From NCBI GenBank assembly GCA_037447655.1, contig JBBHKE010001206.1, positions 1-50,342 on the forward strand: 50,342 nt of DNA, written 5' to 3'. This DNA is from Zygnema cylindricum (Eukaryota; Streptophyta; Zygnematophyceae; Zygnematales; Zygnemataceae). The position numbers and the translations under genes are program-made. Positions 3,638-42,138 of this stretch are shown piece after piece. Below the pieces are notes generated by a model. It searched no databases and was not told the origin of the DNA. It saw nothing but the letters and a program-made list of their open reading frames with translations. Numbering within the stretch: position 1 is the first letter of the stretch; every line of letters begins with the position of its first letter.

Positions 3638-4679
3638 TGTAACTCTGAGACCTCCATAAGTCCTCAGAGTGGACAGCTTCCAAGAAGCCTCTAGGATAAT
3701 CCTGACCCCTTTGTGATTAAGCAAAGATAACTGCCACCCTGGCAGACAAGAACGCTGACCAACTTCACCCCTGTGAAGACAAGACTCCCCTGAGTCGATA
3801 GCAAAAAGAATCTTTGAATTTGCTCCCCTGAGCAGTAAGTTATGGGGGGTCAAAGTTGACCTTTTATACAGAAGCTCTCTGGGAGAGGGGGTCCTATCTT
3901 CTAATTTTTCTAAGTCCTATCTCTCTCACAGACTCTATCTACTGATGTACGGAACCAATCAGAATTGAGTTCCGTACGTAAAAGTACAGCCGCCGGTGTA
4001 CTTTATGTACGGACATTGTACAACATGGCCAAAATGTCGACACATGTCAAATCCGGATTCGGTGCCATGATCTCCGGAGATTCTACGATCCAACGGAATT
4101 TCGCCACGCGTCATCCGATGTGGCGATGGCCACAAACCGCCGAAATCTTCCTCCGTGATCTCGGCGCTAATCCCGGCCGTCCGATTAAATTCAGATTTAA
4201 TCGTGGCCGTAATAAATACATGCGCGGTATTTGTTTTACTTCCGAAACAAATGCGCGGTATTGATTCGTAATCCGTACTATCATTCGTACCGGATCTATG
4301 CATCCCGTAAATCGTAACAGTTAAATGAATTATCGTATGTATTCTAATTTATATAATTATCAAACTACATAGTACGTAATACTACTGCTAGATCTAACGG
4401 CTAAGGCTACCGGCTATTTCCTATCTGCCGGCCGGTAGGTACAAGGATCAAATCCTGCCGCCGGCACATTCCTTTTAAATAAATAAATAAATCCTAGTAT
4501 AAAATTCCCGTAAACCTCAGGATAGCCAAGGTAGCCATGGCTCTAGCTTCCTCTCCAATTTCTCAGTGACTGCGACAAGTTTGAGATTTGGAGAGAGAAG
4601 TTAGAGGTAGACTGCCTCGGCTTCTTTCTATATTTCTATTCAGACCTAGAAAATACTAATAAAACCATTAGTTTCTACA
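3638..4679 (-). repeat. F1a 3' LTR
   Basis: The 1,042-bp LTR is nearly identical to 9032-10073. In element sense it begins TGTAGAAAC and ends GAGTTACA. It carries a TATA box (TATAAAAG, reverse complement of 3861-3868), a U3 rich in GTAC words with a CCAAT box, and an antisense tRNA-like cassette. The gag start codon is also present in this copy, so a transcript starting in the 3' LTR could begin translation there and read into flanking DNA. Confidence 0.95.
4395..4476 (+). other. antisense tRNA-like Pol III cassette in U3
   Basis: On the plus strand, opposite to the element, a tRNA-like unit shows a D-arm/A-box-like block (TAACGGCTAAGGC, 4395-4407), a GC-rich middle stem (TACCGGC with GCCGGTA), a B box GGATCAAATCC (4445-4455, one change from GGTTCAAATCC) and a T-run CCTTTT (4471-4476). 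It is not a canonical tRNA: the middle arm is too long and the acceptor arm pairs poorly. RNA polymerase III promoter function is inferred from the boxes. Confidence 0.6.
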
Positions 4680-4691: not shown

Positions 4692-4692
4692 T

Positions 4693-7600: not shown

Positions 7601-9051
7601 ACATCATCCTCAAAACTAGCAGTAAAGACTCCTTCCCTAGTGCTAGTAAAAAAACCCTTATCATCTAATACTGATGTAGAGATAAGATTTTTGTTCAGCT
7701 CCGGAATAAACAATACATCGGAGAATGTTAATATGGATGTCTTTCCTTCCACTAACACTTTTAGATCTACCGATCCTACAAGAGTAGTGGTGACTATCCT
7801 CCCATCCCCGTACTCTATCTCTACGGTGGGAATCTTTCTTATCTTAGTGAACAGGTGTCTATCCTTACACATGTGCATGGAGGCACCTGAATCTACAATC
7901 CAGCCTGCTTCACCTTTCAATCCACCGTACGCACATTTCTGCCTCCGTGGAATTTCGACCTCATTTTTCGCCTCCAACTCCTCATCCAAAAGGAGCTCAT
8001 CGTCCTCGTCCTCGGATTCAGCCTCAAGTACCTGTGTGACAAGGGCCTTTTTCTTTCCTCTCGAGGTACCACCGGTCTGCCCCTCCTTTAACCGAAGCTC
8101 GGTTAGCTTAGTGCACTCTGCCATATAGTGCCCCGGTTTCTTACAAAAATGACATAGTCCTTTGGGAGCCCTTGGTTCGAACTCATCGGCCGGTTTTTTC
8201 TGCTCCCTACCCCCATAGTTTCCGACCGGTTTTCGGGAATCCCTGTTCCTCCAATCAGTCGCTGTTGCCAAGGCTTGGCCACTCTTTCCTCCCCTTCGGA
8301 TCTCAATTGTATTCTCTTGAACGAGGATCATTCCTACCACTGAGTTCCATATCCACCTTGAGTCAGGCAAGTCCTGCACACGGTAAACTATGTTCACGAA
8401 CTCATCAGGTAACTTCATCAGTAAACAGTTAACCTTTTCTTTTTCACTCAAATCTTTTCCCGCACTCTGTAGCTCCATGAAGAGTGTAGCAAGCTCATTG
8501 CAAAAATCCAACATATTTCCCCCTTTGTATACATACTCCTTAACTTTCTGATCAGCCAACTGTTGTTGCTGAATCGTACCACTTCGGTACATCTCTATAA
8601 GAGCCATCCAAAGATCGGATGCCCTTTCTACCTGCAAATGAGGACATGCAAGTCCTTGAGTGAGATGGCGTAGGATGAAGTGCTTTGCCGCCATATTGTT
8701 GAAGTCCCAGGTTTCAGTATCATTCTCCTCGTTCCTCGGAATAGGTGACATGAATGCTAAACCAGTTGCTATTGGTGTGGTCGCCTCCTTCTCCTTTCCT
8801 TTGTCCACCACCTCTCCTTCCTTTGTTTCCTCCGTTGAAGGTGAATCCTCTTTCCTGGTGAATCTGCTTCCTCCAAACCCTGGAGGAATTCCAAGACTTG
8901 ATGGACGCCCCAATCGTCCACTCACTATCCCCCAAAACCTTTTTTCGCATAGAGCTCCTATCATCATACTTTCCCAGTATATGAAGCCAGTTCCATTAAA
9001 GATTGGTACCCTAGAGGGTGGGCCCATAACCTGTAACTCTGAGACCTCCAT
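4693..9051 (-). CDS. intact copia Gag-Pol polyprotein, 1,452 aa
   Basis: One open frame encodes all Ty1/copia domains in the usual order. Gag occupies about residues 1-300, with a CCHC zinc knuckle (C300, C303, H308, C313). The protease motif DSGAS has D387. The integrase zinc domain has H519, H524, C553, C556; the integrase core has D584, D647 and E683, the last two separated by 35 residues as in D,D35E enzymes. The reverse transcriptase has D1037 and YVDD at 1122-1125. RNase H has D1302, E1342 and D1378. The start ATG at 9051 lies inside the 5' LTR; the first codons read MEVSELQ, the Gln codon spans the LTR/internal boundary and VMGPP is encoded by the primer-binding site. No frameshift separates Gag from Pol, so Gag excess must come from another mechanism (unknown). 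No missing catalytic residue was seen. Confidence 0.95.
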   Translation of the reverse strand: MEVSELQVMGPPSRVPIFNGTGFIYWESMMIGALCEKRFWGIVSGRLGRPSSLGIPPGFGGSRFTRKEDSPSTEETKEGEVVDKGKEKEATTPIATGLAFMSPIPRNEENDTETWDFNNMAAKHFILRHLTQGLACPHLQVERASDLWMALIEMYRSGTIQQQQLADQKVKEYVYKGGNMLDFCNELATLFMELQSAGKDLSEKEKVNCLLMKLPDEFVNIVYRVQDLPDSRWIWNSVVGMILVQENTIEIRRGGKSGQALATATDWRNRDSRKPVGNYGGREQKKPADEFEPRAPKGLCHFCKKPGHYMAECTKLTELRLKEGQTGGTSRGKKKALVTQVLEAESEDEDDELLLDEELEAKNEVEIPRRQKCAYGGLKGEAGWIVDSGASMHMCKDRHLFTKIRKIPTVEIEYGDGRIVTTTLVGSVDLKVLVEGKTSILTFSDVLFIPELNKNLISTSVLDDKGFFTSTREGVFTASFEDDVYFIAEKGSHGMFRLILSNEKKKLYYAGVHDIMMWHKRLGHVNLDKLREMKKMGVVEGIQFSESDDISDCSGCAQGKAHRLPFPKSATYKGEKILDLVHTDIWGPAKVPSPGGKRFMMTITDDWSRYSRVYFLKNKSEAENCFRQYKAWSEKLHETPIKRVRSDNGGEYTSNQFEDFLREDGVQHQKTVPENPEQNGVAERLNRTLSDSARSMLSDKRIGKRFWAEAMNCANYLKNRVLTSAIKDQTPYERWTGRKPDISHLKVFGSQVFSLDTDRSNWKLDPKGKPGYLLGYDEDVKGYRVYDLKREDIILVKHLVVMDEGKSVDPFKYTKSVKIRFESENSDDFELPNYPGFREDDILAGTNQTEKDSAVETPVTTLLEAEDVVEIDSESRDRGEAEFVRKNPREPSIPASDFEGGRRSSKRLQEKQVINKVTKLSHQDEPQTYGEAMTCPERNRWKTAINEEMASIMAADTWELVDCPPNRKPIGCKWVFKLKLNPDNTIERYKARLVAKGFTQKEGIDYEETFAPVVRFPSVRILLSLAAAEDMEVHQMDIKTAFLHGELEEEIFMRQPEGFVEEGEESKVCRLIKSLYGLKQAPRQWNKKLDEFLTGLGYIRISSDHSIYVFEDEEGLIFIAIYVDDLLVLSKSMEKINKLKTDLKGRFEMKDMGEARYILGIQVERDRKRKIIRLTQKEAIGNMLEKFQMDKANSCTTPMELKKGSEGSEEEGVIVLDEELSPDEQKFMQTIPYRQVVGSLIYFMNCTRPDLAAAVGVLSRSLNAPTKKDWEAAKRVLRYLVGTRDLWLHLGGENTDITTWSDASYGDAPMRRCTSGYVLYVGDGACCWSSKQQKVIAQSTMEAEYMASCSAVKELMWVKSLLGELGHLKSGVQKIFCDNQAAIAISANPKHHFKAKHMDIRLSFVREKVENKIISLEYRPDSEMVADMMTKPVPSPKLIFCREKCGLKLKID
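9019..9031 (-). promoter_or_regulatory. primer-binding site, initiator tRNA-Met anticodon arm type
   Basis: In element sense GGTTATGGGCCCA follows the LTR terminus directly. It is complementary to the anticodon arm of eukaryotic initiator tRNA-Met (TGGGCCCATAACC), not to the tRNA 3' end. Drosophila copia is known to prime from a cut initiator tRNA-Met in this way. Here the site is also translated. Confidence 0.85.
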
Positions 9052-9254
9052 AAGTCCTCAGAGTGGACAGCTTCCAAGAAGCCTCTAGGATAATCCTGAC
9101 CCCTTTGTGATTAAGCAAAGATAACTGCCACCCTGGCAGACAAAAACGCTGACCAACTTCACCCCTGTGAAGACAAGACTCCCCTGAGTCGATAGCAAAA
9201 AGAATCTTTGAATTTGCTCCCCTGAGCAGTAAGTTATGGGGGGTCAAAGTTGAC
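9037..9254 (-). promoter_or_regulatory. leader hairpin array with gag AUG in the last loop
   Basis: Six perfect short stems lie in order between the TATA box and the LTR end: 9241-9254 (GGTCAA), 9215-9228 (TGCTC), 9177-9190 (GACTC), 9157-9172 (CTTCAC), 9125-9139 (CTGCCA) and 9037-9063 (CTCTGAG, 7 bp). Loops of the middle four are GGG-rich in element sense. A smaller stem CTTC/GAAG lies at 9071-9081. The loop of the last hairpin contains the gag AUG (9049-9051). The same order of stems, with different sequences, recurs in F3, F4 and F5. A structural role in RNA packaging, dimerisation or translation is inferred. Confidence 0.75.
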
Positions 9255-9340
9255 CTTTTATACAGAAGCTCTCTGGGAGAGGGGGTCCTATCTTCTAATT
9301 TTTCTAAGTCCTATCTCTCTCACAGACTCTATCTACTGAT

Positions 9341-9415
9341 GTACGGAACCAATCAGAATTGAGTTCCGTACGTAAAAGTACAGCCGCCGGTGTACTTTAT
9401 GTACGGACATTGTAC
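9341..9415. promoter_or_regulatory. GTAC-rich U3 segment with CCAAT box
   Basis: Six GTAC palindromes fall in about 75 bp upstream of the TATA box, with an inverted pair GTACGGAA ... TTCCGTAC around CCAATCAG. The same arrangement is present in the 3' LTR (3947-4021), and looser versions occur in F1b, F1c, F3, F4 and F5. GTAC is the core recognised by plant SBP-domain and copper-response factors; whether such a factor binds here is unknown. Confidence 0.5.
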
Positions 9416-9788
9416 AACATGGCCAAAATGTCGACACATGTCAAATCCGGATTCGGTGCCATGATCTCCGGAGATTCTACGATCCAACGGAATTTCGCCA
9501 CGCGTCATCCGATGTGGCGATGGCCACAAACCGCCGAAATCTTCCTCCGTGATCTCGGCGCTAATCCCGGCCGTCCGATTAAATTCAGATTTAATCGTGG
9601 CCGTAATAAATACATGCGCGGTATTTGTTTTACTTCCGAAACAAATGCGCGGTATTGATTCGTAATCCGTACTATCATTCGTACCGGATCTATGCATCCC
9701 GTAAATCGTAACAGTTAAATGAATTATCGTATGTATTCTAATTTATATAATTATCAAACTACATAGTACGTAATACTACTGCTAGATC

Positions 9789-9870
9789 TAACGGCTAAGG
9801 CTACCGGCTATTTCCTATCTGCCGGCCGGTAGGTACAAGGATCAAATCCTGCCGCCGGCACATTCCTTTT
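9789..9870 (+). other. antisense tRNA-like Pol III cassette in F1a 5' LTR
   Basis: Same unit as at 4395-4476, in the 5' LTR. The B box GGATCAAATCC is at 9839-9849 and the T-run is at the right end. The unit is on the strand opposite to gag-pol and upstream of the element's TATA box. Confidence 0.6.
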
Positions 9871-10073
9871 AAATAAATAAATAAATCCTAGTATAAAATT
9901 CCCGTAAACCTCAGGATAGCCAAGGTAGCCATGGCTCTAGCTTCCTCTCCAATTTCTCAGTGACTGCGACAAGTTTGAGATTTGGAGAGAGAAGTTAGAG
10001 GTAGACTGCCTCGGCTTCTTTCTATATTTCTATTCAGACCTAGAAAATACTAATAAAACCATTAGTTTCTACA

Positions 10074-15147: not shown

Positions 15148-16035
15148 TGAAATTCTGTGGTCAACATTGACCCACAGAATTAGCAGCCTATGTAAAGCCT
15201 CTAGGATAATATTTGCCCCTTCTACTTTCCCACTGAATAAGTGCCGCCCAGGCACAAAAATATTTTGACCACTCTCACCCTTGTAAAGACAAGACTCCCT
15301 TGAGTCAAACGCAAAAAGAATCACTGAATTTGCTCCCCTAAGCAGTAAGTTATGGTTGGTCAAAGATGACCTTTATAGTTACAAGCTCTCTTGAGGAGAG
15401 GTACCTAAATATCACTAAGTCTTGGTCTGCCTACTCACGACTACCTACCACTAAAACCTAGTTCAATAGAAACACTATATAGTACAAGAAGGTACAATAT
15501 GCGATGTACTTATTGTACGACCATTGTACGACATGGTCTACAAGGTGACACCTATCAAATTGGGAGTCATGGTTCCTCCTCCCATCTTCTCCGGTATCAA
15601 ATAATATGGCGCCACGTGGCACCATGTGACGCTATCTCCAAATGCCGCCAAAAGCTCACTTCGCGGGGCGGCTACAATGCTGGTCGTCCGATCAAAACAT
15701 ATTTAACACGGTTCAGATTCGCGTACATGTATGAATTGCTCCTTTTCGTTAGTCTGCTGTTAATTAGCTGTCGCGGTAATGTTTATATATCTTTGAAACC
15801 CGTCACTTGTATCGTTTCGATAACGCCCTAGTGGATAAGGCTTTTCTGTACATATTGGTTCACAGACCCAGGTTTAAATCTTGACGTAGGCAACATTTTA
15901 GAAAAATATCCTCTACTTCAAAATCTGCCACTTTCTAAAAATGGCGGCAGCCATGGCGTGCATTTGATCCTCACTCTCTTTATTTCAAGTAAAACTAACA
16001 TAGAGTAGTGAACTATTAATTACTTGTTTTCAACA
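15148..16035 (-). repeat. F3 3' LTR
   Basis: 888 bp. In element sense it starts TGTTGAAAACAAG and ends GAATTTCA. The TATA-like CTATAAAGG lies just upstream of the first leader hairpin (15358-15371). Leader stems recur at 15293-15306 (GACTC) and 15241-15255 (GTGCC). The last hairpin, 15151-15181, has a 10-bp stem with the gag ATG (15165-15167) in its loop. Confidence 0.9.
15814..15900 (+). other. antisense tRNA-like cassette, F3 3' LTR
   Basis: On the strand opposite to the element. The D-arm block CGCCCTAGTGGATAAGGC resembles the 5' half of arginine tRNAs. A decayed B box GGTTTAAATCT lies at 15871-15881, and TTTT follows at 15896-15899. The acceptor and anticodon arms are poor, so this is tRNA-like rather than a working tRNA. 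Confidence 0.5.
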
Positions 16036-20529: not shown

Positions 20530-21394
20530 TGACCCACAAAATGAGCAGCCTATGTAAAGCCTCTAGAATAATATTTGCCCCTTCCACTTTCCCACTAAAT
20601 AAGTGCCACCCTGGCCTACAAATATTTTGACCATCCTCACCCTTGTGAGGACAAGACTCCCTTGAGTCAAACGCAAAAAAATCACTGAATTTGCTCCTCT
20701 GAACAGTAAGTTATGGTTGGTCAAAGATGACCTTTATAGTTACAAGCTCTCTTTGAGAGAGGTACCTAAATATCACTAAGTCTTGGTCTACCTACTCACG
20801 ACTACCTACTACTAAACCCTAGTCCAATAGGAACACTATATAGTACAAGAAGGTACAATAGGCGATATACTTATTGTACAGTCATTGTACGACATGGTCT
20901 ACAAGGTGACACCTTTCAAATCGGGAGCCATTGTTCCTCCTCCCATCTTTTCCGATATCAAATAATATGGCGCCACGTGGCACCGCGTGACGCTATCTCC
21001 AAATGCCGCCAAAAGCTCACTTCGCGTGGCGGCTACAATGTCGGCCATCTGATCTAAACATATTTAACACGATTCAAATTCGCGTACATGCATGAATTGC
21101 TCATTTTCGTTAGTCTGCTGTTAATTAGCTGTCGCGGTAATATTTATATATCTTTGAAACCCGTCAAGTGTATCGTTTCGATAACGCCCTAGTGGAAAAG
21201 GCTTTCTCTATATATTGGTTCACAAACCCAAGTTTAAATATGGACCCATGAAATATTTTAGTAAAATATCTTCTACTTCAAAATCTGCCACTTTCTAAAA
21301 TGGCGGCAGTCATGGCGTGCCTTTGATCCTCACTCTCTTTCTTTCAAGTAAAACTAAAATAGAGAAGTGAACTATTAATTACCTCTTTTCAACA
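20510..21394 (-). repeat. F3 5' LTR
   Basis: 885 bp, paired with 15148-16035. The gag ATG is 20 nt from its end (20527-20529). The primer-binding site next to it (20497-20509) reads GGTTTTGGGCCCA, one change from the F1 site. The leader stem CCTCAC/GTGAGG near 20636-20651 is a compensated variant of the F1 stem CTTCAC/GTGAAG. Confidence 0.9.
21174..21260 (+). other. antisense tRNA-like cassette, F3 5' LTR
   Basis: Counterpart of 15814-15900, more decayed: the B box is changed to AGTTTAAATAT. The GCCCTAGTGGA block is kept. Promoter function is doubtful in this copy. Confidence 0.4.
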
Positions 21395-23781: not shown

Positions 23782-24829
23782 TGAAACTCTGAGACCTCCA
23801 TAAGTCCTCAGAGTAGACAGCTTCCAAGAAGCCTCTAGGATAATCCTGACCCCTTTGTGTTTCAGCAAAATTAACTGCCACCCTGGCGGACAAAAACCCT
23901 GACCACCTGCACCCCTGTGAAGGCAAGACTCCCCTGAGTCGATAGCAAAAAGAATCTCTGAATTTGCTCCCCTGAGCAGTAAGTTATGGAGGGTCAAAGT
24001 TGACCTTTTGTACAGAAGCTCTCTGGGAGAGAGGGTCCTATCTCCTAATTTTTCTAAGTCCTATCTCTCTCACAGACTCTATCTACTGATGTACGGAACC
24101 AATCAAAATAAAGTTCCGTACGTAAAAGTATAGCTTCCGGTGTACTTTATGTACAAACATTGTACGACATGGCCTAAATGTCGACACATGTCATATCCGG
24201 ATTCGGTGCCATAATCTCTGGAGATTCCACGATCCAATGTAATTTCGCCACGTGTCATCCGATGTGGCGATGGCCACAAACCGCCGAAATCTTCTTCCGG
24301 GATCTCGGCCTTAATCGCGGCCGTCCGATTAAATTCGGATTTAATCGTAGACGTTATAAATACATGCGCAGAATTTGTTTTAATTATGAAACAAATGCGC
24401 GGTAATGATTTTTGTTCGTACTGTTATTCGTACATTATATATTACTGGATCTATGTATCCCGTAATCCATTACAGTTAAATGATTTATCGTACGTATAAA
24501 TATTTAAATAAATATCAAACTATATAGTATGTGACACTAATCCTAGACTTAACGGCTAAGGCTACCGGCTATTTCCTGTCTACCGGACGGTCGGTACAAG
24601 GATCAATTCCTGTCGCCGGCACATACCTTTCAAATAAATAAACCCTAACTATTACAAATTTCCCGTAAACCTCAGGATAGCGAAGGTAGCCATGGCTCTA
24701 GCTTCCTCTCCAATTTCTGAGTGACTGCGACAAGTTTGAGAGTTGGAGAGAGAAGTTAGGGATAGACTGCCTCGGCTTCTTTATTTCTTTTCAGACCTAG
24801 AAAATACTTAAAAACCATTAGTTTCTACA
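23782..24829 (-). repeat. F1b solo LTR
   Basis: 1,048 bp, homologous over its length to the F1a LTRs, flanked by AAGCG (23777-23781, 24830-24834). No internal region is present, which is the usual product of LTR-LTR recombination. The leader hairpins, TATA box and GTAC-rich segment are recognisable. Confidence 0.93.
24550..24629 (+). other. antisense tRNA-like cassette in F1b
   Basis: The same D-arm block (TAACGGCTAAGGC) as F1a, with B box GGATCAATTCC (one more change than F1a). The terminator T-run is reduced to CCTTTC. It is on the strand opposite to the LTR. Confidence 0.45.
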
Positions 24830-28025: not shown

Positions 28026-28322
28026 ACAGGATCTCCGTGTATCGTTTCGTTGGTGCCTTAATGGATAAGGCGTGGGTCTACACCATATAATGTAGACCCC
28101 GGTTCAAATCCGGCCGGGTGTAGTATTTTGCTAAACTAGTAAAATACCTTCTAATTCAGTCTGCCTCCTTCTAAATGACGCAGCAGCCATGGCTTACCTT
28201 TTTTCCTCTCTTTCTCTCTCTTTACATTCTAACTAAAATATAGAAGTGAACTATTAATTACCTTTTTCCAACACTCTATTTATTTTTCCAATACAGACAT
28301 AGAAAATAAATAAATTTCAACA
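28026..28322 (-). repeat. F4-type LTR fragment (U3 end)
   Basis: In reverse complement this matches the first ~300 bp of the F4 LTR, from TGTTGAAATTTAT onward, and is cut at about 28025 by the foldback element. It lies inside the left LTR of F1c, just before the CCTTTT run that follows the tRNA-like unit in intact F1 LTRs. Confidence 0.8.
28044..28129 (+). other. antisense tRNA-like cassette in the F4-type fragment
   Basis: The best preserved cassette: D-arm GCCTTAATGGATAAGGC, a 9-bp middle stem (GGGTCTACA/TGTAGACCC), a perfect B box GGTTCAAATCC at 28101-28111 and TTTT at 28126-28129. The middle arm is longer than an anticodon stem and there is no clear 7-base anticodon loop, so it is not a standard tRNA. 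Confidence 0.65.
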
Positions 28323-30892
28323 TCCTTTTAGTAAATAAACCCCTAAAGGTAAATAAACTAGTATTTATATCTCGTAAACCTCTGGATAGCCTAGGTAGCC
28401 ATGGCTCTAGCTTCCACTCCAATTTTTAGTGACTGAGACAAGTTTGAGTGTTGGAGAGAGAAGTTAGAGGTAGACTGCCTCGGCTTCTTTCTATATGTCT
28501 ATTTAGACTTAGAAAATACTTAAAACGGACCATTAATTTCTACACTCCCCTTATTTTCTAGTCAATCTTTAATTTCATACCACACTTCTCCTTGCAGAAA
28601 GTTAGTTTAGGGGAAGGCACAGGTTTGGTCATCATATCTGCTATCATCTCGCTATCTGGTCGGTACTCTTAACTGATTATTTTGTTTTCTACTTTCTCTC
28701 TTACAAAACTGAGTCTAATGTCCATGTGTTTGGCTATAAAATGATGTTTAGGATTGGCAGAAATAGCGATTGCTGCCTGATTATCACAAAAAAAATTCTG
28801 TAGACCACTCTTAAGGTGACCAAGCTCACCAAGCAAAGACTTGACCCACATCAATTCATTTACACCAGAGCAAGAGGCCATATACTCAGCCTCCATGGTG
28901 GACTGAGCAATAACCTTTTGTTGTTTGCTACTCCAACAGCAAGCCCCATCACCCACATATAGAACATATCCAGAAGTACATCTCCTCATCTGAGCATCAC
29001 CATAACTGGCATCACTCCAAGTAGTGATGTCAGTATTCTCCCCACCCAAATGCAACCATAGATCCCTAGTTCCCATCAAATATCTAAGGAATCTCTTAGC
29101 TACCTCCCTATCCCTCTAAGTGGGAGCGTTTAGACTTCTACTCAGCACTCCAACAGCTGCAGCTAAATCCGGCCGGGTACAATTCATAAAATTGATTAGA
29201 CTTCCCACTAATAGCCTGTAAGGAATAGTCTGCATGAACTTCTGTTCTTCATGAGATAATTCCTCGTCTAAGACTATGACTCCTTCTTCCTCACTCTCCT
29301 CACCTCCCTTCTTGAACTCCATTGGAGTTGTACAACTATTAGCTTTATCCATCTGAAATTTTTCAAGCATGTTCCCTATTGCTTCCTTTTGAGTCAATTT
29401 AATAATATTTCTTTTTCGGTCTCTTTCTACTTGAATTCCCAAAATGTATTTTGCTTCCCCCATATCATTCATTTCAAATCTCCCCTTAAGATCAATTTTC
29501 AGTTTATTAATTTTTTCCATTGATTTACTTAAAACAAGCAAATCATCAACATAAATTGCAATAAATATCAACCCTTCCTCATCTTCAAAAACATAGATTG
29601 AGTGATCTGAGCTGATCCGAATATATCCCAAACCGGTAAGAAACTCATCAAGCTTCTTATTCCATTGTCGAGGTGCCTGTTTCAAACCATAAAGAGATTT
29701 AATCAAGCGACATACCTTACTCTCCTCTCCTTCCTCCACAAACTGTTCGGGTTGTCGCTTGAAGATCTCCTCTTCCAATTCTCCATGCAAAATGGTTGTC
29801 TTGATGTCCATCTGGTGTACTTCCATGTCTTCCGCTGCTGCCAGGCTGAGAAGTATGCGGACGGAGGGAAATCTGTCGACCGGGGCAAAGGTTTCCTCGT
29901 AGTCAAATCCCTCCATTTGTGTAAATCCCTTTGCCACTAATCAGGCTTTGTAGCCCTCGATTGTGTTATTTGGGTTCAGTTTTATTTTGAAAACCCACTT
30001 ACAACCGATTGGTTTTCCGTAAGGTGGACAATCCACTAGCTCCCAAGTATCGGATGCCATAATTGAGGCCATCTCCTCATTGATGGTTGTCTTCCACCGG
30101 TTCCTTTCTGGACAAGTCATCACCTCTCTATAAGTTTGAGGTTCATCTTGAAGAGATAGTTTTGTTACCTTGTTATTAACCTATTTTTCTTGCAGTCTTT
30201 TGCTACTTCTCCTTCCCCCCTCAAAATTTGAGGTCGGAATAGATGTTTCTCGTAGATTCTTTCGAACAATCCCGGCTTCTCCCTTATCCCTTGATTCCGA
30301 ATCAATTTCCACCACGTCTTCCTCTTCGGGTAGAGTTCTCACTGGAGTTTCCAAAGCCGAGTCCTTTTTCGGTCTGATTTGTACCTGTAAGAATGTCATC
30401 TTCTCTAAAACTTGGATAGTTCGAAAACTCAAAGTCATCGGAATATTCTGACTCAAATCTGATTTTTACTGATTTTGTGTACTTGAAGGGATCCAGAGAC
30501 TTTCCTTCATCCATAACTACTAGATGCTTTACTAAGATTATATCTTCCTTTTTTAGATCCTAAACTCTATATCCTTTAACATCCTCATCATATCCAAATA
30601 AGTATCCCGGTTTTCCTTTAGGATCTAGCTTCCAATTAGACCGATCTGTATCTAGACTGAATACTTGAATGCCGAAAACCTTTAAGTGAGATATGTCTGG
30701 TTTCCGGCCTGTCCATCTCCAATAAGGTGTTTGATCTTTTATAGCTGAAGTAAGAACTCTATTTTTGAGGTAATTAGCACAGTTCATTGCTTCTGCCCAA
30801 AACCTTTCTCCTATCTTTTTATCTGACAACATACTTCTAGCACTATCACTTAGTGTTCTATTTGTTGTCTTTTTGGAAAGCTTTCAGTCTCA

Positions 30893-31185
30893 AAGCAGCG
30901 CAGCTGCTTTACAGACAAAGCAGCGCAGCTGCTATACAGACAGAGCAACGCAGCTGCTATATAACAGAGCACCGCAGCTCCTATACAGCAGAGCAGCTGC
31001 TATTCAGCAGAGCAGCTGCTATACAGCAGAGCAGCTGCTATGCTGCAGAGCTGATGCTATACACCAGAGCAGCTGCTATACAGCAGAGCAGTTGCTATAC
31101 AACAGAGCAGGTGCTATACAGCAGAGCAGGTGCTATACAGCAGAGCAGCTGCTATATTGCAGAGCAGCGCAGCAGCGAAGCTGCA
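30893..31185 (+). repeat. CAGCTG minisatellite in the F6 LTR
   Basis: About 14 tandem units grade from roughly 24-25 bp (AAAGCAGCGCAGCTGC...) to 19 bp (AGCAGAGCAGCTGCTATAC). Most units carry the palindrome CAGCTG, an E-box core. Long open frames through it are by-products of the repeat. Confidence 0.85.
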
Positions 31186-31306
31186 ACACTGACAGGACAA
31201 TGCAAACATGATTATATTTGATATGGTCCGTACGGGCAATGCATCGTCTTATATTCTTAATGTGATTTTGTACAGGATAGAGCAACTGCGATAGATACGA
31301 TTCTAG

Positions 31307-33904: not shown

Positions 33905-34678
33905 CTAAACTCTGAGACCTCCATAAGTCCTCAGAATGGGCAGCTTCCAAGAAGCCTCTAAGATAACCCTGACCCCTTTGTGTTTCAGCAAGAAAAATTG
34001 CCACCCTGGAAGACAATATCTTTGACCACCTTTACCCCTATAAAGGCAAGACTCCTCTGAGTCGATAGCAAAAAGAATCTCTGAATTTGCTCCCCTGAGC
34101 AGTAAGTTATGGAGGGTCAAAGTTGACCTTTTGTACAGAAGCTCTCTAGTAGAGAGGGTCCTATCTCCTAATTTTTCTAAGTCCTATCTCTCTCACAGAC
34201 TCTATCTACTAATGTACGGAGCCAATCAGATTACACTTCCGTACACAAAAGTACAGCTGCCGGTGTACTTTTTATACCGACACTGTACGACATGGCCTAA
34301 ATGTCGACACGTGGTATATCCGGATTTGCTCCCTTAATCCTCGGAGATGCCGCGATCCAATGTCATTCCGCCACCTGTCATCCGATGTAGCAATGAACAA
34401 AAACCGCCGAAATTCTCTTCCGCGATCTCGGCATTTAATTCTGGCGGTCCGATTATATTCACATTTAATCTGAGTCGTAATAAATACATGCGCGGTATTC
34501 GTTTCCCTAAAGAAATAAATGCGCGGTATTCGTTTCTTATCCGTATTGTAATCTGTACTTTTACATTACTGGATCTATGTCTCTCGTAAACAATTTCAGT
34601 TAAATGAATAATCTTAGGTGTTAATGTTTAACTAAAATATCGAACCATATAGTATGTAACACTAGGTCTGGACTTAAC
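33905..34678 (-). repeat. F1c 5' LTR, U5 side
   Basis: Homologous to the F1a LTR from its 3' end up to the tRNA-like unit, where F4 inserted. The other part is 38806-39096. It retains the ATG 20 nt from the LTR end (33922-33924), a TATA-region variant and a GTAC-rich segment near 34213-34290. The adjacent primer-binding site is changed to GTTTTGGGCCCA. Confidence 0.85.
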
Positions 34679-34872
34679 TGTTGAAATTTATGTATTTTCC
34701 AGGTCTGTATTGGAAAAATAAATAGAGTGTTGAAAAGAGGTGACTAATAGTTCTCTTCTATATTTTAGTTAGAATGTAAAGAGAGAGAAAGAGAGGACCA
34801 AAGGCACGCCATGGTTGCCGCATCATTTAGAAGGAGGCAGAATGAATTAGAAAGTATTTTACTAGTTTTAGC

Positions 34873-34958
34873 AAAATACTGCCGCCGGCCGGATTTGAAC
34901 CGGGGTCTATAGGCTACTAAATAGACCAACGCCTTATCCATTAGGCTACTATCGAAAC
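34873..34958 (-). other. antisense tRNA-Arg-like Pol III cassette, F4 5' LTR
   Basis: On the minus strand, opposite to the element, TAGCCTAATGG (34948-34938) matches the A-box pattern TRGYNNANNNG. The following GATAAGGC gives a D-arm typical of arginine tRNAs. The B box GGTTCAAATCC (34901-34891) is perfect, and TTTT follows at 34876-34873. The middle arm is GGTCTAT/ATAGACC with an enlarged loop and no evident anticodon. Pol III transcription would run antisense through U3. Confidence 0.68.
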
Positions 34959-35470
34959 AATACACGTGACACGTTTCACGCACATTTACCTATTGATTCA
35001 AAGGACTAATTCGCAGCAGACTAACGAAAACGCGCATTAATCAATTGATGCATGGAAGCGAATCGAAGCCGTATAAATACAATTGATCGGACGGCCACCA
35101 TTACAGCCGCCACCCACAATAAGCTTTCGGCGGCCTTTGGGGATAGCGTCACGCGATGCCACGTGGCGCCACATTATTTGACACCGGAGAAGATGGGAGG
35201 AGGAACCATGGCTCCCGATTTGGCACATGTCACCTTGTAGACCATGTCGTACAATGGCCGTACAATAAGTACATCGCCCATCATACCTTCTTGTACTATA
35301 TAGTGTTCCTATTGGACCAGGGTTTAGTAGCAGGTAGTCATGATAAGGCAGACTAAGACTTAGTGATATTTCGGTACCTATCTCTAAGAGAGCTTGTAAC
35401 TATAAAGGTCATCTTTGACCAGCCATAACTTAATGCTCGGGTGAGAAAATTCAGTGATTCTTTTTGCTGC

Positions 35471-35765
35471 GGACTCAGGGGAGTCCAACCTACACAAAGG
35501 TGTAGTTGGTCAGAATCTTTGCGTGCCAGGGTGGCACTTATTCAGTGGGAAAGTCAAAGTGGGGAATATTGTCCAAAACACATATTGAAGCTTTGCATTT
35601 TGTGGTGGAACTGAGCACACATAAGGTCTTCTCTTCACAGGGGTGAAGGTATATTGGGGTTCTTATTTTAAAGGGATCATTTATTTGGGTTTATATCAAC
35701 TTGGAGTCGGCACTATCTAGATTAGCTTCTTTTGGATTTGCGAATTTTGTGGGCAATGGAGCCCA
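35471..35765 (+). promoter_or_regulatory. F4 leader hairpins, gag AUG in the last loop
   Basis: Perfect stems: 35471-35486 (GGACTC, loop AGGG), 35485-35509 (CTACAC, loop AAAG, extended by CCAA/TTGG), 35523-35537 (GTGCCA), 35633-35648 (CTTCAC, loop AGGG) and 35750-35765 (TGGGC). The loop of the last holds the gag ATG at 35756. Several stems are compensated variants of the F1 stems. Confidence 0.72.
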
Positions 35766-37690
35766 TAGAATTTCAGGTTATGGGCCCACCATCTAGGGTG
35801 CCTATGTTCAATGGAACAGACTTCACTTATTGGGAGTGTATTATGGAGGGATTGCTTTTCGAGAAGCACTTATGGAGAATTGTTTCGGGACAAGTGAGAT
35901 GTCCGCCACCTGGCTTTGGAGGAGCTTACTATGGAGAACCATCTGAGGCTGCCCAGAATATTAACTGGAGTTTAGATGCAACGAAAGGTGAAAGGAAAAA
36001 CCTTTCCGTGGATGGGGATATAGGGGAGAAGGATAAAAGGACACTTATGGTGAGGGGAGCTATGCTCTGCGCCACAGCTCCGCTTAGAGGGGCTATAAGT
36101 AAAACTGAAGAAAATGATTGTAAAATTTGGGAGTATAAAAACACTATAGCAAAACATCTTATACTTAGATATGTGTCTAAGTCCATAGCTATCACTCTTT
36201 TAAGTCTTACCAAGTCTTCGGAAATATGGGAAACACTAAGGCAGATTTATAAGAGTGAGACTATTCAGAGGCAGCAGTTAGTAAAACAGGAAATAGAGGC
36301 CTATGTTTATAAAGGCGGTAACATGATAGAGTTTTGCAATGATATTGCTACATTATATGTTGAGCTTGCTAGTGCGGGGTATGTAGAATCTGAGGAGAGA
36401 AAGATCAATACACTACTCATGAAACTCCCAGATGAGTACGAAAACATCATTTATCGTATACAGGAAATGAATGGCTCCTCATGGACTTGGAGCTTTACCA
36501 TGGGGATAATTCTTGTGAGGGAAAGCACTTTGGAGCTTCGTAGGGGAAGTGACAGGGTGAATGCATTTACTGCTGGTGGTGATTGGCGAAAGCGTGATGA
36601 GAGGAAGAAAGACAAAGGTAAACCTTATCGGAAATTTGGTGGAAAGAGAGGGAGAGGAAAAGACAAAGGAGCTTTGAAAAAGGGTGTTTGCTTCTTTTGT
36701 AGGGAACCGGGTCACTATATGGAGGAGTGTCCTTGTTTGGAAGAACTTAGAAGCTGGAATGTGAAAGAGGAGGAAGAAGGAAAAGAGAATGAAGAGGATG
36801 AAGAAATTTTGGAGCTTCTTCACATCGGTAGAATGGAGAAGAGAGAGAAGTACACAGAAATTACACGAAAGCAACGATGTGCTTTTGGAGGTATAAGGGA
36901 AGTAAAAGGAAGGGAGGTACTTAAAAAAGTTAGACATGATGTGGATGTTAAGGAGTATAGAAAGTCAGATATAGAATCTATAATTGAAAAAGGGAAAAAT
37001 AAAAATAATGAGGATAATTTAATAGATATTTTGGAAACAGAAAACTGGTCGGAAAGGGAGACTTCAACGGCTTTCGAGGAAAGGGGAGAAGTAAATATAG
37101 AGGGAGTTTTAAAAGATAGGGGAGAAGAGGAATATTTAATGAAAGGTTTAGGGGAGGAGAAATATTTATTGGGAATAAAAATAGAAAGTGATAGCGGGAA
37201 GAATTCCATGGGAGAGAGTGAGGAAAGTTTAGAAAATGGGGTGAGTATCATGGATAAAAATATGAGTACGGAAGAAGTAAATCTTATGAGGAACTTAGTG
37301 GGGACACTTGTTTTTTGGGATAATTTGGGGGATAATTGGTTTGACATCACTAATGGGAGTGATGGCATTTATGAAGGTGTGCCTGTAAGAGGGTTAGCAT
37401 CTGGGTGTGTGTTGCAGATTGGAGATGGGGCTGGCTGTTTGAATTGCAAGAGGGAAATTGGATTTAGTGTGGATGGAAAAGAAATGAGGTGGATAAAGTA
37501 TTTTCTCGGATTTTTGAAAAATAGCATGCAAAATAACATGTGTGATGTAATTATTATTTCAGTTCATCTAATATACATCTTTAAATACAAGGGTATTCAC
37601 TTAGAGTTTTATGAGGAGAAAAGAAAGAAGAAAAAGAAAAAGAAGAAAAAAAAATTGTGTTTAGTGGGAGTTAAAAAGAAAGTAGACTAG
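35756..37690 (+). CDS. F4 Gag-like protein with degenerate Pol tail, 644 aa
   Basis: The ATG at 35756 is 20 nt inside the LTR, giving MEPIEFQ and then VMGPPSRVP encoded by the primer-binding site. A longer frame can start upstream at TTG 35732, but the ATG matches the start in F1, F3 and F5. About residues 1-310 are Gag, with zinc knuckle CFFC...GHYMEEC (coded near 36695-36730). The protease, integrase and most of the RT are missing. The rest is a highly charged linker and weak remnants of RT (EKYLLGI near 37160) and RNase H (LQIGDGAGC near 37415, without the catalytic WSDAS/EAEY set), ending in a lysine run. No stop occurs in 1.9 kb, although the tail has diverged strongly. The product is probably a structural protein. 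Confidence 0.85.
   Translation: MEPIEFQVMGPPSRVPMFNGTDFTYWECIMEGLLFEKHLWRIVSGQVRCPPPGFGGAYYGEPSEAAQNINWSLDATKGERKNLSVDGDIGEKDKRTLMVRGAMLCATAPLRGAISKTEENDCKIWEYKNTIAKHLILRYVSKSIAITLLSLTKSSEIWETLRQIYKSETIQRQQLVKQEIEAYVYKGGNMIEFCNDIATLYVELASAGYVESEERKINTLLMKLPDEYENIIYRIQEMNGSSWTWSFTMGIILVRESTLELRRGSDRVNAFTAGGDWRKRDERKKDKGKPYRKFGGKRGRGKDKGALKKGVCFFCREPGHYMEECPCLEELRSWNVKEEEEGKENEEDEEILELLHIGRMEKREKYTEITRKQRCAFGGIREVKGREVLKKVRHDVDVKEYRKSDIESIIEKGKNKNNEDNLIDILETENWSERETSTAFEERGEVNIEGVLKDRGEEEYLMKGLGEEKYLLGIKIESDSGKNSMGESEESLENGVSIMDKNMSTEEVNLMRNLVGTLVFWDNLGDNWFDITNGSDGIYEGVPVRGLASGCVLQIGDGAGCLNCKREIGFSVDGKEMRWIKYFLGFLKNSMQNNMCDVIIISVHLIYIFKYKGIHLEFYEEKRKKKKKKKKKKLCLVGVKKKVD
35776..35788 (+). promoter_or_regulatory. 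F4 primer-binding site (coding)
   Basis: GGTTATGGGCCCA directly follows the LTR and is identical to the F1a site. It is complementary to the anticodon arm of initiator tRNA-Met and is read in frame as part of Gln-Val-Met-Gly-Pro. Confidence 0.85.
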
Positions 37691-37703: not shown

Positions 37704-38800
37704 TGTTGAAATTTATGTATTTTCTAGGTCTGTATTGGAAAAATAAATAGAGTGTTGAAAAGAGGTGACTAATAGTTCACTTCTATATTTTAGTTAGAAT
37801 GTAAAGAGAGAGAAAGAGAGGACCAAAGGCACGCCATGGTTGCCGCATCATTTAGAAGGAGGCAGAATGAATTAGAAAGTATTTTACTAGTTTTAGCAAA
37901 ATACTGCCGCCGGCCGGATTTGAACCGGGGTCTATAGGCTACTAAATAGACCAACGCCTTATCCATTAGGCTACTATCGAAACAATACACGTGACACGTT
38001 TCACGCACATTTACCTATTGATTCAAAGGACTAATTCGCAGCAGATTGACGAAAACGCGTATTAATCAATTGATGCATGGAAGCGAATCGAAGCCGTAGA
38101 AATACAATTGATCGGACGGCCACCATTACAGCCGCCACCCGCAATAAGCTTTCGGCGGCCTTTGGGGATAGCGTCACGCGGTGCCACGTGGCGCCACATT
38201 ATTTGACACCGGAGAAGATGGGAGGAGGAACCATGGCTCCCGATTTGGCACATGTCACCTTGTAGACCATGTCGTACAATGGCCGTACAATAAGTACATC
38301 GCCCATCATACCTTCTTGTACTATATAGTGTTCCTATTGGACCAGGGTTTAGTAGCAGGTAGTCATGATAAGGCAGACTAAGACTTAGTGATATTTCGGT
38401 ACCTATCTCTAAGAGAGCTTGTAACTATAAAGGTCATCTTTGACCAGCCATAACTTAATGCTCGGGTGAGCAAATTCAATGATTCTTTTTGCTGCGGACT
38501 CAATGGAGTCCAAGCTACACAAAGGTGTAGTTGGTTAGAATATTTGCGTGCCAGGGTGGCACTTATTCAGTGGGAAAGTCAAAGTGGGGAATATTGTCCA
38601 AAACACATATTGAAGCTTTGCATTTTGTGGTGGAACTGAGCACACATACGGTCTTCTCTTCACACGGGTGAAGGTATATTGGGGTTCTTATTTTAAAGGG
38701 ATCATTTATTTGGATTTATATCAACTTGGAGACGGCACTATCTAGATTAGCTTCTTTTGGATTTGCGAATTTTGTGGGCAATGGAGCCCAGAGAATTTCA
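37704..38800 (+). repeat. F4 3' LTR
   Basis: 1,097 bp, matching the 5' LTR. The leader stem GGACTC is changed on the loop side (CAATGGAG), while the gag-start hairpin is kept. It again contains an ATG that could start translation of a 3' readthrough product. Confidence 0.92.
37898..37983 (-). other. antisense tRNA-Arg-like cassette, F4 3' LTR
   Basis: A copy of the cassette at 34873-34958 with the A box, the perfect B box and the T-run all unchanged. Confidence 0.66.
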
Positions 38801-38805
38801 TTAAC

Positions 38806-39096
38806 AGATAAGGCTACCGACTACCGGCAGCTTAACAGCAGGTACCAAGATCAAATCCTGGAGGCATCGCATATTCTTTTAGTAAATAAACCCCTAATGG
38901 TAAATAAACTAGTTTTTATTTCTCGTAAACCTCTAGATAGTTTAGGTAGCCATGACTCTAGCTTCCTCTCCAATTTCTCTTTGACTGCGACAAGTTTGAG
39001 AGTTGGAGAGAGAAGTTAGAGGTAGACTGGCTCGGCTTCTTTATATATTTCTATTTAGACCTAGAAAATACTTTAAACGGACCATTAATTTTTACA
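38806..39096 (-). repeat. F1c 5' LTR, U3 side
   Basis: The remainder of the F1c LTR after F4. It begins within the tRNA-like unit: AGATAAGGC, then a decayed B box AGATCAAATCC near 38849-38859 and a CTTTT run. It ends ...TTTTTACA. F4 inserted at the 5' edge of this tRNA-like unit. Confidence 0.85.
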
Positions 39097-39101
39097 GTGT
39101 T

Positions 39102-39836
39102 CTCCTACACGAGTATCATTCGGACCATTGTGTTCCACTTCCAAGAATTGTCATCTATTTTTTGTACTTGGTACACTATGTTTTCATACTCCTCACGCAA
39201 CTTCATGATGAGGGTGTTAACTTTCATCTTCATTGTGCCTATCCATCCGGCACTTTCCATCTCCATATACAAACAAGAGAGATCATTACGGTAGTCTAAC
39301 ATCTTCCCTCCTTTGAAAGTATAACTCCCCAGCCTTTGCTCAGCCAACTGAAGCTCCTGAATGGTACCAGATTTATAGATCTCCACTTAAGTAATCCACA
39401 ACTCTTCGGCCTTGAAGATGTGAAGATGAGAGGTTGCCAAAGCTTGAGTGAGGTGTCTCAGAATGAAGTGCTTGGCATTCATGTTGCTGTTCTCCCACAT
39501 CTGAATATCGTTTTCCTTGGTCTTCACGGCCACCGCTCTGGGTGACGTGGCAATGGGAGTAAGAGGTGTCTCTTTTCCTTTCCCTTTTTCGGACACACTG
39601 TTGTCCCCATCGTCTGTCTCATGCGTTGGCTCAGATGCTGCTGCAGAAAACCTCACTCCACCAAACCCCGGTGGAGTTCCCTGAGATAGACGTTTCATTT
39701 GTCCACTGACAATACCCGAGTATCGCTTTTCACACAATGCCCCTATCATCATGGCTTCCCAGTAAATGAACCCAGATCTGTTGAAGATGGGCACCCTAGA
39801 GGGTGGGCCCATAACCTGTAATTTTGTGTCCCCCAT
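39102..39836 (-). pseudogene. F5 gag, truncated
   Basis: The ATG at 39836 lies 20 nt inside the LTR (MGDTKLQ, then VMGPPSRVP). Gag runs 149 codons to a stop at about 39387, continues in the same frame to about 39105 and is cut off where F1c inserted. Everything downstream (zinc knuckle, Pol, 3' LTR) is missing from the window. Confidence 0.82.
39804..39816 (-). promoter_or_regulatory. F5 primer-binding site (coding)
   Basis: In element sense GGTTATGGGCCCA, identical to F1a and F4, directly after the LTR terminus TTACA. Confidence 0.82.
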
Positions 39837-40813
39837 TAGACTGCAAAGTTTAAGAAGCTTCTAGATAGCTTTTGACTAACCCACTTTCAACTAGAACTGC
39901 TGCTACCCAAGCAGGCAAATAGGTAATCTGGCTACACCCCAGTGTAGTGTGGACTCCCGTGAGTCCACAACAAAAAGAATCACTGAAAACGCCCAACCAG
40001 GCGATTAGTTATCAAGTGGCAAATATGCCAATATCTATACAAGCTTGTTGGGAGAGAGGCGGCTACCTTCTCAATCCTCTTAGTCCTAAACCCCTCTCAC
40101 AACCCCTATCTACTGATATACGAACCAATCAGAAGACTGTACAGTACAGAAAGTTACTAGGGCCGATGTACTTTTTGTACTGCTTGTGTACAACAAGGCC
40201 ATGGAGTAGACGTCTGTCCCCTTCAGACTTGTCCTCGCGCTCTGCGGGATTCCCGCTTCCCAATGATATTTTGCTACATGTCGACAAGTTATGTCACGTC
40301 CGAAAACCGCCAAGGCAGCCATTCCGGGATCTTGGCGATGATGAGGGCCGTCGGATCCAAACCGGTTTTTAATGCTAGCTGTTCAAAAAAACAAATGTCC
40401 GGTACATTTGTTTCGTGCGTACTAAAAATCAACTAGTTTCTATGTTGTCATTTTTTTATTCCGTTAATCGAATTAATGATCTAGCTAATGTTTAAATAGA
40501 AATCAAACCTTATGTATCCTAATGGACTACTTCGACAGACCGGTAAGAGCTGACGGCTACGCCTCGTTTGCCGGTCAGAGGTTCGAGTCCTCCCGGACTC
40601 AACCTTTTTGTTGAGAGTGACTTAGGTCACTCTTTAGTCTTGCTTATGGAGCTGAGGCAGCCATGGCTCCACCGCCCTCTCTCTCCTTCAGTGACTACAA
40701 GAAGTTTGGGGGCTAGAGAGAGAAGGTGGAGGCAGGCTGCCTAGGCTTTTCTTTAGCTATTCTAATCAATTAAGATCTAGAAAATATCTCCCCTAAATCT
40801 AGTGATTTCAACA
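39817..40813 (-). repeat. F5 5' LTR
   Basis: 997 bp with TG...CA ends. Leader stems: 40017-40030 (TGGCA), 39990-40003 (CGCC), 39949-39968 (GTGGACTC, 8 bp), 39932-39947 (CTACAC) and a weaker CTGC/GCAG near 39897-39913. The gag-start hairpin is imperfect (TTTG and GTC pair with GAC and CAAA). The U3 has a CCAAT box and clustered GTAC words near 40135-40195. Confidence 0.85.
40529..40609 (+). other. antisense tRNA-like cassette, F5 LTR
   Basis: On the strand opposite to the element: GGTAAGAGCTGACGGC as the D-arm-like block, GACCGG/CCGGTC middle stem, perfect B box GGTTCGAGTCC (40580-40590) and TTTTT at 40605-40609. Its sequence differs from the F1 and F3/F4 units, so it probably derives from another tRNA type. 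Confidence 0.6.
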
Positions 40814-41483: not shown

Positions 41484-42138
41484 TGATATGAATAAGAGTC
41501 AATCGGAATGCGCTCACAAATACTTAAATGTCCTAATGCGGAAGCGATATTAAAATGAAATGAAACAATACAACACATCGAAAGCGCATAATCCAAGATA
41601 GAGAGAAATTGAATACTCAATATAATAAGCTCATATTAACTTAATCCTTAACATTACACTTCTATTAATTTATTCCTCCTTAATTGACTCTTGATTCATT
41701 TCTAATTGTTATACTATCTAAATTACACGATGGCTTTTTAACTTAGCCGCGGAAAATAATATAGAACACTTACTCTATAAGTGTTTAAATGTACTTAGAC
41801 GTAAATGTGGTACAAAACAAAATGAAACTACTAGAAACTAATGTGACAAAGTTCTGTACGACAAGTTTAACTTACGTGAAACGAACATACTAGACGTACA
41901 ATGCACAAAACGAAACTTCTCGACGTAAGGTAATAGAACTTAAACAAAATTAAATCTCATCGTGTACGTGTAAAAAGTACACGCACGAAATACTACATCA
42001 AACTATTTGAAACAAAACCGAATCTGCGAACTAAATGAAACCAAGTTAAGTACGCGAAGTGACACGAGACCAAATCTAATCCACACTTAAAAACGAACAA
42101 GCATCACGTAAACCTAGATTCAACAATTGTACTTAACA
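41484..42138 (-). repeat. F8 3' LTR
   Basis: 655 bp. In element sense it begins TGTTAAGTAC and ends GTATCA or similar, preceded by the purine tract AAAGGGGGAT (42139-42148). Confidence 0.85.

What the first reader, a model, noticed from the sequence alone, without database searches (positions are those of the whole stretch)
34873..34958. tRNA-like Pol III cassettes embedded antisense in the U3 of four copia families
F1, F3, F4 and F5 each have a D-arm/A-box-like block, a B box and a T-run within about 80 bp. All are in the same place (U3, upstream of TATA) and always on the strand opposite to the element. The B box is perfect in F4 and F5 and one base off in F1. The units differ in sequence (Arg-like in F3/F4, other types in F1 and F5), so the feature either was acquired repeatedly or diverged under constraint. 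Cassandra LTRs with 5S sequence are the closest analogue I know; tRNA-like units in autonomous copia LTRs would be new to me. An antisense Pol III RNA could regulate the element or open its chromatin.
Basis: partly seen in the sequence, partly recalled or inferred. Interest (0 to 1): 0.88.

Follow-up and report, generated by a model that had tools for sequence, protein, structure and literature searches.

The report
Antisense tRNA-derived module in copia LTRs
Several related copia retrotransposons here carry, backwards in the regulatory end of their terminal repeats, a stretch that looks descended from a transfer-RNA gene and still resembles a start-and-stop signal for the enzyme that makes small RNAs; it appears to be inherited from one ancestor, and whether it still works is untested.

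Summary
Over both strands of the window, A box + B box + T4 sets scoring >=1 occur at 4 sites (0.00 expected) and >=0 at 5 (0.10 expected), all antisense in U3 of these copia LTRs. The named site has perfect boxes and a T4, and matches Rfam's tRNA model without its acceptor stem, below the gathering score (24.4 of 29 bits).

Corrections: the 'F4' unit lies in an F3-type LTR nested in F4; F4's own unit is a decayed F1-type one interrupted by F3; F2 carries decayed units too. Units and flanks align, so one ancestral capture explains place and orientation. LTR pieces of two other copia lineages lack it.

Against function: in six pairs the boxes differ as much as the rest of the LTR; F1, F1b, F4 and one F2 unit are near or within chance alone.

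New: further along the antisense strand, F1, F4 and F5 carry a ~100-nt hairpin folding better antisense than sense in 5 of 5 distinct copies.

Closest kinds: Cassandra, Helenus, Ajax (non-autonomous TRIMs). An antisense unit in full-size copia LTRs looks like a new variant. Host genome could not be searched.

The parts
34873..34948 (-). F3 5' LTR unit: A box 34938-34948, B box 34891-34901, T4 34873-34876; antisense to the plus-strand LTR
37898..37973 (-). F3 3' LTR copy of the same unit
28053..28129 (+).
40515..40609 (+). F5 unit: A box 40515-40525 (1 mismatch), B box 40580-40590 (perfect), T5 40605-40609; LTR is on minus
4389..4476 (+). F1 3' LTR unit, B box GGATCAAATCC (1 mismatch), weak A box, T4; LTR is on minus
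9783..9870 (+). F1 5' LTR copy of the same unit
24544..24610 (+). F1b solo LTR: decayed unit, B box GGATCAATTCC, no T4
38801..38880 (+). F4 own unit (B box side), F1-like and degenerate; A-box side continues at about 34660-34678, across the F3 insertion
15824..15899 (+). F2 3' LTR: degenerate unit (B box GGTTTAAATCT)
21185..21259 (+). F2 5' LTR: more degenerate unit (not above chance alone)
34679..35775 (+). F3 5' LTR (3' LTR 37704-38800), TSD TTAAC
9032..10073 (-). F1 5' LTR (3' LTR 3638-4679)
39817..40813 (-). F5 LTR
4519..4626 (+). F1 U3 hairpin on the antisense strand (same strand as the unit); identical in the 5' LTR
24674..24781 (+). F1b U3 hairpin, antisense strand
38944..39038 (+). F4 5' LTR U3 hairpin, antisense strand
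28384..28488 (+). F4 3' LTR U3 hairpin, antisense strand
   Evidence: no shuffle z computed
40648..40749 (+). F5 U3 hairpin, antisense strand

Best explanation
One ancestor of this Ty1/copia lineage captured a tRNA-derived sequence (tRNA-Arg-like by recall; a tRNA pseudogene or the head of a tRNA-type SINE) in antisense orientation roughly 200 nt into U3, and F1, F2, F3, F4 and F5 inherited it. In F3 and F5 it keeps what a type-2 Pol III promoter needs: A box, B box at tRNA-like spacing and a T-run 14 nt past the B box. There it most likely still binds TFIIIC and Pol III and gives an antisense RNA of roughly 85-110 nt ending inside U3. In F1, F4 and F2 it is decaying. Likely effect: at the 3' LTR it opposes the element's own Pol II transcript, which must cross U3 (interference); at the 5' LTR it may keep chromatin open upstream of the Pol II promoter. 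Shown: anatomy, homology, orientation, excess over chance. Inferred: capture from a tRNA gene or SINE, Pol III occupancy, the RNA, its effect.
For: Perfect or one-off A and B boxes with T4/T5 in F3 (two LTRs), F3-like and F5, 0/500 shuffles each; 4 sites at score >=1 window-wide, all antisense in U3, 0.00 expected; partial tRNA covariance-model match in F3; T4 or longer at 14-18 nt in 7 of 8 units; alignment of units and flanks; no unit in 5 of 5 F6/F7 LTR pieces; a precedent for antisense Pol III interference in PMC5358760.
Against: Boxes differ as much as the rest of the LTR in six pairs (Fisher p 0.66-0.985) and the B box ranks 102 of 1087 windows LTR-wide. F1, the element with the intact frame, has a weaker unit (19 and 21/500). 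The unit's own fold is not strand-specific. F1b and F2_5 have lost it. No expression data; acceptor stem absent.
Confidence: 0.5

Rival explanations
1. Inert relic: a tRNA-derived SINE or pseudogene landed once in an ancestral LTR and has been carried along without function; F3 and F5 keep the boxes by chance or because little time has passed.
For: No excess conservation of boxes in six pairs; F1, F1b, F4 and F2 units decayed.
Against: F3 and F5 are very diverged from each other yet both keep near-consensus boxes and a T-run at the same 14-nt spacing; in the first 409 nt the B box is among the most conserved windows, rank 8 of 409.
Confidence: 0.35
2. TFIIIC landing site: the boxes recruit TFIIIC as a boundary or chromatin opener, and the RNA itself does not matter.
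For: Boxes without a full tRNA fold; known extra-TFIIIC behaviour (recalled).
Against: A T-run at tRNA-like distance in 7 of 8 units suggests transcription was or is used.
Confidence: 0.1
3. Integration beacon: the unit draws new insertions of the lineage, as tRNA genes do for yeast Ty1 and Ty3.
For: Both F3-type insertions seen lie in F4 units: one in the A-box region of the 5' LTR, one just inside the T4 of the 3' LTR.
Against: Only two events, noticed after the fact; the four other insertions whose targets could be placed (F1b, F2, F4, F5) show no site at the target.
Confidence: 0.04
4. Chance resemblance to A box, B box and T-run.
For: F1, F1b, F4 and F2_5 units alone are near or within chance.
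Against: F3, F3-like and F5 0/500 each; 0.00 expected window-wide; covariance-model match.
Confidence: 0.01

Closest known systems
Helenus, TRIMs with a tRNA-like sequence in the LTR (Kojima 2024, PMC10886601; abstract, introduction, methods, results up to the start of 3.7, discussion and some passages read)
   Same: tRNA-derived A and B boxes inside the LTR of an LTR retroelement, no full tRNA; fungal families have 5-bp TSDs and PBSs matching the anticodon loop of initiator tRNA, as copia does
   Different: Helenus is non-autonomous and 311-1263 bp, with the tRNA-like part proposed as its own promoter; here LTRs alone are about 0.9-1.1 kb, the unit is antisense, and F1 has an intact frame and a separate TATA-like Pol II site
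Cassandra and Ajax, TRIMs with 5S rRNA sequence (as described in PMC10886601; Cassandra papers seen only as listings)
   Same: Pol III promoter captured in an LTR
   Different: 5S not tRNA, non-autonomous, promoter used for the element's own RNA
Antisense MIR in the mouse Polr3e intron (PMC5358760; abstract and one section read)
   Same: tRNA-type Pol III unit antisense to a Pol II transcript; in a reporter it lowered expression 20-30% in antisense, with no measurable effect in sense orientation
   Different: host gene intron, not an LTR; effect shown by experiment there, not here
Bovine leukaemia virus Pol III miRNA cluster (PMC4992882; abstract read)
   Same: type-2 Pol III promoters within an LTR retroelement; collision of convergent Pol III and Pol II reported
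   Different: miRNA-producing cluster; the abstract names no tRNA-derived LTR unit
MHV68 TMER tRNA-miRNA genes (structure recalled; listings only)
   Same: tRNA-like part followed by a hairpin
   Different: in TMERs both lie in one transcript; here a T4/T5 stands between unit and hairpin in F1, F4 and F5

Membership tests
Helenus / TRIMp3 | tRNA-like sequence with A and B boxes in the LTR | tested here: met
   F3, F3-like, F5 strong; F1, F4, F2_3 weaker; F1b and F2_5 not above chance
Helenus / TRIMp3 | short non-autonomous element (311-1263 bp, no coding) | tested here: not met
   F1 spans 3638-10073 with a 1454-aa frame; F3 is about 4.1 kb with a 654-aa frame
Helenus / TRIMp3 | tRNA-like promoter usable for the element's own transcript (sense orientation implied; the text searched does not state orientation) | tested here: not met
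   8 of 8 units are antisense to their LTR
tRNA gene | full cloverleaf with acceptor stem | tested here: not met
   ARAGORN 0; Rfam positions 7-64 of 71, 24.4 bits below 29
free tRNA-type SINE | dispersed copies with their own TSDs outside LTRs | tested here: inconclusive
Type-2 Pol III transcription unit | A box, B box, T-run terminator at tRNA-like spacing | tested here: met
   met in F3, F3-like and F5; partly in F1, F4, F2; not in F1b
Type-2 Pol III transcription unit | Pol III/TFIIIC occupancy and RNA | not testable with these tools
   needs ChIP and RNA-seq
MHV68 TMER-type tRNA-miRNA gene (definition recalled) | tRNA-like promoter and hairpin in one Pol III transcript, terminator after the hairpin | tested here: not met
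   T4/T5 lies before the hairpin in F1, F4 and F5; read-through is not testable; F1b lacks the T4 but its promoter is decayed

The most novel reading that the evidence does not exclude
The U3 of this copia lineage carries a two-part antisense non-coding RNA locus: a captured tRNA-type Pol III promoter followed, on the same strand, by a ~100-nt precursor-like hairpin selected for its antisense RNA fold. Leaky termination at the short T-run would give a hairpin RNA complementary to the element's own U3: a built-in small-RNA regulator of the element or an interferer with its silencing.
Probability: 0.1. Interest if true: 0.85.

Novelty: new variant of a known kind. Interest (0 to 1): 0.55.

Why it matters
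In the papers found, Pol III promoters inside LTRs are described for small non-autonomous elements that use them for their own RNA. An antisense unit in full-size copia LTRs would set a Pol III gene against a Pol II retrotransposon promoter in each new copy. Its graded states (near-consensus in F3 and F5, decaying in F1, F4 and F2) would make it possible to test whether Pol III interference or TFIIIC binding controls a retrotransposon.

Tried and rejected
Independent acquisition in four families: rejected, units and flanks align. A separate F4-family unit at 28101: rejected, it is in an F3-type LTR. Functional tRNA: rejected. Excess conservation of the boxes: tested in six pairs, not found. 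Strand-specific fold of the unit: not found; with G-U pairs allowed the stem between the boxes is longer antisense in F5, F1 and F1b, longer sense in F3-like and F2_3, equal in F3. Strict covariation of that stem across families: not testable, the stems are out of register. Rfam on the F3-like, F5 and F1 unit regions lists no tRNA match.

Relatives: viral contigs with an RT piece and two RT alignments, none confirmed; a unit DNA pattern, 0; genome contigs, none confirmed; gag piece, none of 1140 candidates. The host stays unknown; an animal is guessed only because the PBS fits the animal initiator tRNA-Met anticodon arm (recalled).

Literature: 10 searches were answered. No listed title or abstract start describes an antisense tRNA-like unit in autonomous copia LTRs; the lists were capped at 12-15 papers each. 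PMC3286476 (one passage) concerns tandem tRNA copies at the PBS of a gypsy element; PMC5248466 (one passage) has nothing on this; PMC10186651 has no occurrence of the Pol III or tRNA terms. PMC3911700: abstract only.

Full report
What is there. The window is a nest of Ty1/copia elements. LTRs were found by self-BLAST and by their ends: F1 (3638-4679 and 9032-10073, minus), F2 (15148-16035 and 20510-21394, minus), F3 (34679-35775 and 37704-38800, plus), F4 (minus; 5' LTR split by F3, 3' LTR starting at 28544), F5 (one LTR, 39817-40813, minus), a solo F1-type LTR, F1b (about 23784-24829, minus), and two other copia lineages, F6 (plus, interrupted by F2 and F1b) and F7 (LTRs 41484-41891 and 46579-46986). 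F1 has one uninterrupted 1454-aa frame and LTRs that differ at 1 of the 1035 nt compared: a young, possibly autonomous element. F3 has only 1928 nt between its LTRs, with a 654-aa frame. F6 is the more distant relative: its RT piece is 61% identical to F4's, F2's is 83%.

The unit. On the minus strand at 34873-34958 the sequence reads A box TAGCCTAATGG, a D-arm-like GATAAGGCG, a 7-bp stem, B box GGTTCAAATCC, and TTTT 14 nt after the B box. Rfam's tRNA model matches 34887-34949 with 24.4 bits (gathering score 29), positions 7-64 of 71, so without most of the acceptor stem; E is 0.0074 for 422 nt against 4227 families. ARAGORN reports nothing. The D arm resembles tRNA-Arg (recalled, not tested). 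For the F3-like, F5 and F1 unit regions no tRNA match is listed.

Chance. A consensus score (A box, B box, T4 in the right place; consensus recalled) over the whole window, both strands, lists 11 sites at score >= -1. Eight are units described here, all antisense in U3; three are elsewhere (402, 8174, 13062), all at -1. At >=0 there are 5 sites and at >=1 four, all in these U3s; 40 block shuffles average 0.10 and 0.00. Per LTR against 500 dinucleotide shuffles: F3 0/500 in both LTRs, F3-like 0/500, F5 0/500, F2_3 3/500, F1 19 and 21/500, F4 22/500, F2_5 108/500, F1b 320/500. On the sense strand the lowest is 98/500 (F2_3), the other nine 238-448/500. In F1, F2 and F4 the best-scoring A box is not the one homologous to F3's, so their scores flatter them. 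The F6 and F7 LTR pieces (5 of 5) reach only -4 or -5 antisense.

Whose unit is whose. F4's own unit is F1-like: joining the flanks of the F3 insertion (TSD TTAAC) gives a sequence that aligns with F1b through the A-box region. F3 is therefore inserted in the A-box region of F4's unit, and the F3-like LTR just inside the T4 of the unit in F4's other LTR.

One origin. In an alignment of the first ~420 nt of ten LTR sequences the units share columns and flanks: a GCCATGGCTGCC-like block about 80 nt before the B box (sense direction), then B box, A box and a shared region after it. B boxes start at LTR position 154-239. F5 differs most: its best A box is 54 nt from the B box, against 36 in F3, and a separate origin of the F5 unit is not fully excluded. 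Common place and orientation are best counted as one inherited event.

Constraint. For: among 409 11-nt windows of the first part of the LTR the B box ranks 8th, ties included, behind the GCCATGGCTGCC block. The stem between the boxes is longer than in mononucleotide shuffles in F3 (7 bp, p 0.006), F3-like (9 bp, p 0.0003) and F1 (8 bp, p 0.003). Not in F5, F1b, F4, F2_3 and F2_5 (p 0.12-0.55). Against: over the whole LTR the B box ranks 102 of 1087 and the A-box window 364. In six pairs (F3/F3-like, F1/F1b, F1/F4, F1b/F4, F3/F2_3, F3/F2_5; not independent) the boxes differ as much as the rest (Fisher p 0.66-0.985). Folding of the unit is modest and not strand-specific: z antisense -0.15, -2.07, -2.33, -1.44, -1.10 and sense -0.94, -3.49, -0.53, -0.55, -0.82 for F3, F3-like, F5, F1, F1b. 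Function is not demonstrated.

A second antisense feature. F1, F1b, F4 (both LTRs) and F5 share a ~100-nt hairpin that begins about 57-85 nt beyond the B box in the antisense direction in the four copies where the unit is contiguous with it (F1, F1b, F4 5' LTR, F5). The antisense fold is better than the sense fold in 5 of 5 distinct copies: -56.2/-47.7 (F1), -48.1/-35.6 (F1b), -46.1/-35.3 (F4_5), -49.4/-35.4 (F4_3), -62.5/-52.1 (F5) kcal/mol. Antisense z is -6.44 (F1), -3.95 (F1b), -3.27 (F4_5), -5.12 (F5); sense z where computed is -5.03 (F1), -1.86 (F4_5), -4.34 (F5). In a strand-blind alignment of the two arms, differences that are G-U on the antisense strand outnumber those that are G-U on the sense strand 5:2, 7:2, 7:1, 7:1 and 4:1 (F1, F1b, F4_5, F4_3, F5). 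F1, F1b and F4 are close relatives, so these are not five independent counts. On the alignment 94.9% of 217 cells pair and 4 pairs change on both sides; 1 of 500 shuffles reaches the covariation score, but 364 of 500 reach the number of further pair types. Consensus fold energy is -48.6 antisense and -33.2 sense, with covariation terms -0.04 and +1.6. The corresponding stretch in F3, F3-like and F2_3 does not fold beyond chance (z -0.54, 0.15, -1.26). Because a T4 or T5 stands between unit and hairpin in F1, F4 and F5, and F3, which has the best unit, has no hairpin, the two are best treated as separate modules.

Mechanism. Most likely a captured tRNA-type Pol III promoter that in F3 and F5 still makes a short antisense RNA ending in U3. 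The nearest known effect is interference by an antisense MIR, which lowered a Pol II reporter by 20-30% in antisense, with no measurable effect in sense orientation (PMC5358760, one section). In an LTR element the 3' copy of the unit lies inside the Pol II transcript (established LTR-retrotransposon biology), so similar interference would be expected there. All of this is inference.

Known kinds. Kojima (PMC10886601; abstract, introduction, methods, results up to the start of 3.7, discussion and passages read) describes Helenus and Ajax, with Cassandra, as non-autonomous TRIMs with small-RNA-gene promoters. [quoted passage not shown] The case here differs in orientation, element size and coding capacity. 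None of the listed results of 10 answered searches describes it (see Tried and rejected). Subscription papers, Repbase and supplements were not searched, so novelty is provisional.

Limits. The host is unknown and its genome could not be searched. The evidence is ten LTR sequences from one window, several close relatives by descent or LTR pairs of one element.

Noticed in passing
9019-9051 (minus), 35756-35788 (plus), 39804-39836 (minus): In F1, F3 and F5 an ATG in frame with gag lies inside the LTR, 20 nt before its end, so the frame runs through the PBS (GGTTATGGGCCCA, read as ..VMGP); the PBS directly follows the LTR and fits the anticodon arm of initiator tRNA-Met as in Drosophila copia (recalled).
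   Followed up: partly
34678/38801 and 28322: Both F3-type insertions seen are inside F4 units: one in the A-box region (5' LTR), one just inside the T4 (3' LTR). Two events only; possible targeting.
   Followed up: partly
35726-37690: F3 looks like a deletion derivative that keeps a 654-aa gag-containing frame with a lysine run near its end: a candidate gag-only copia derivative.
   Followed up: no
27466-27720: Long, nearly perfect inverted repeat inside a larger insertion that truncates the F3-like LTR; it matches plant-type miRNA-precursor models below their gathering scores, probably a foldback element.
   Followed up: no
30936-31201: Array of ~19-nt tandem repeats between the two halves of F4's pol region.
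   Followed up: no
12962-13517: 278-nt head-to-tail duplication, 92% identical, near the start of F6.
   Followed up: no
LTR position ~128-141 of F1-F5 (e.g. 34808-34819): A GCCATGGCTGCC-like block is the most conserved stretch in the first 409 nt of these LTRs; in F1, F4 and F5 it forms part of one arm of the U3 hairpin, yet it is also kept in F3 and F2, which lack the hairpin.
   Followed up: partly
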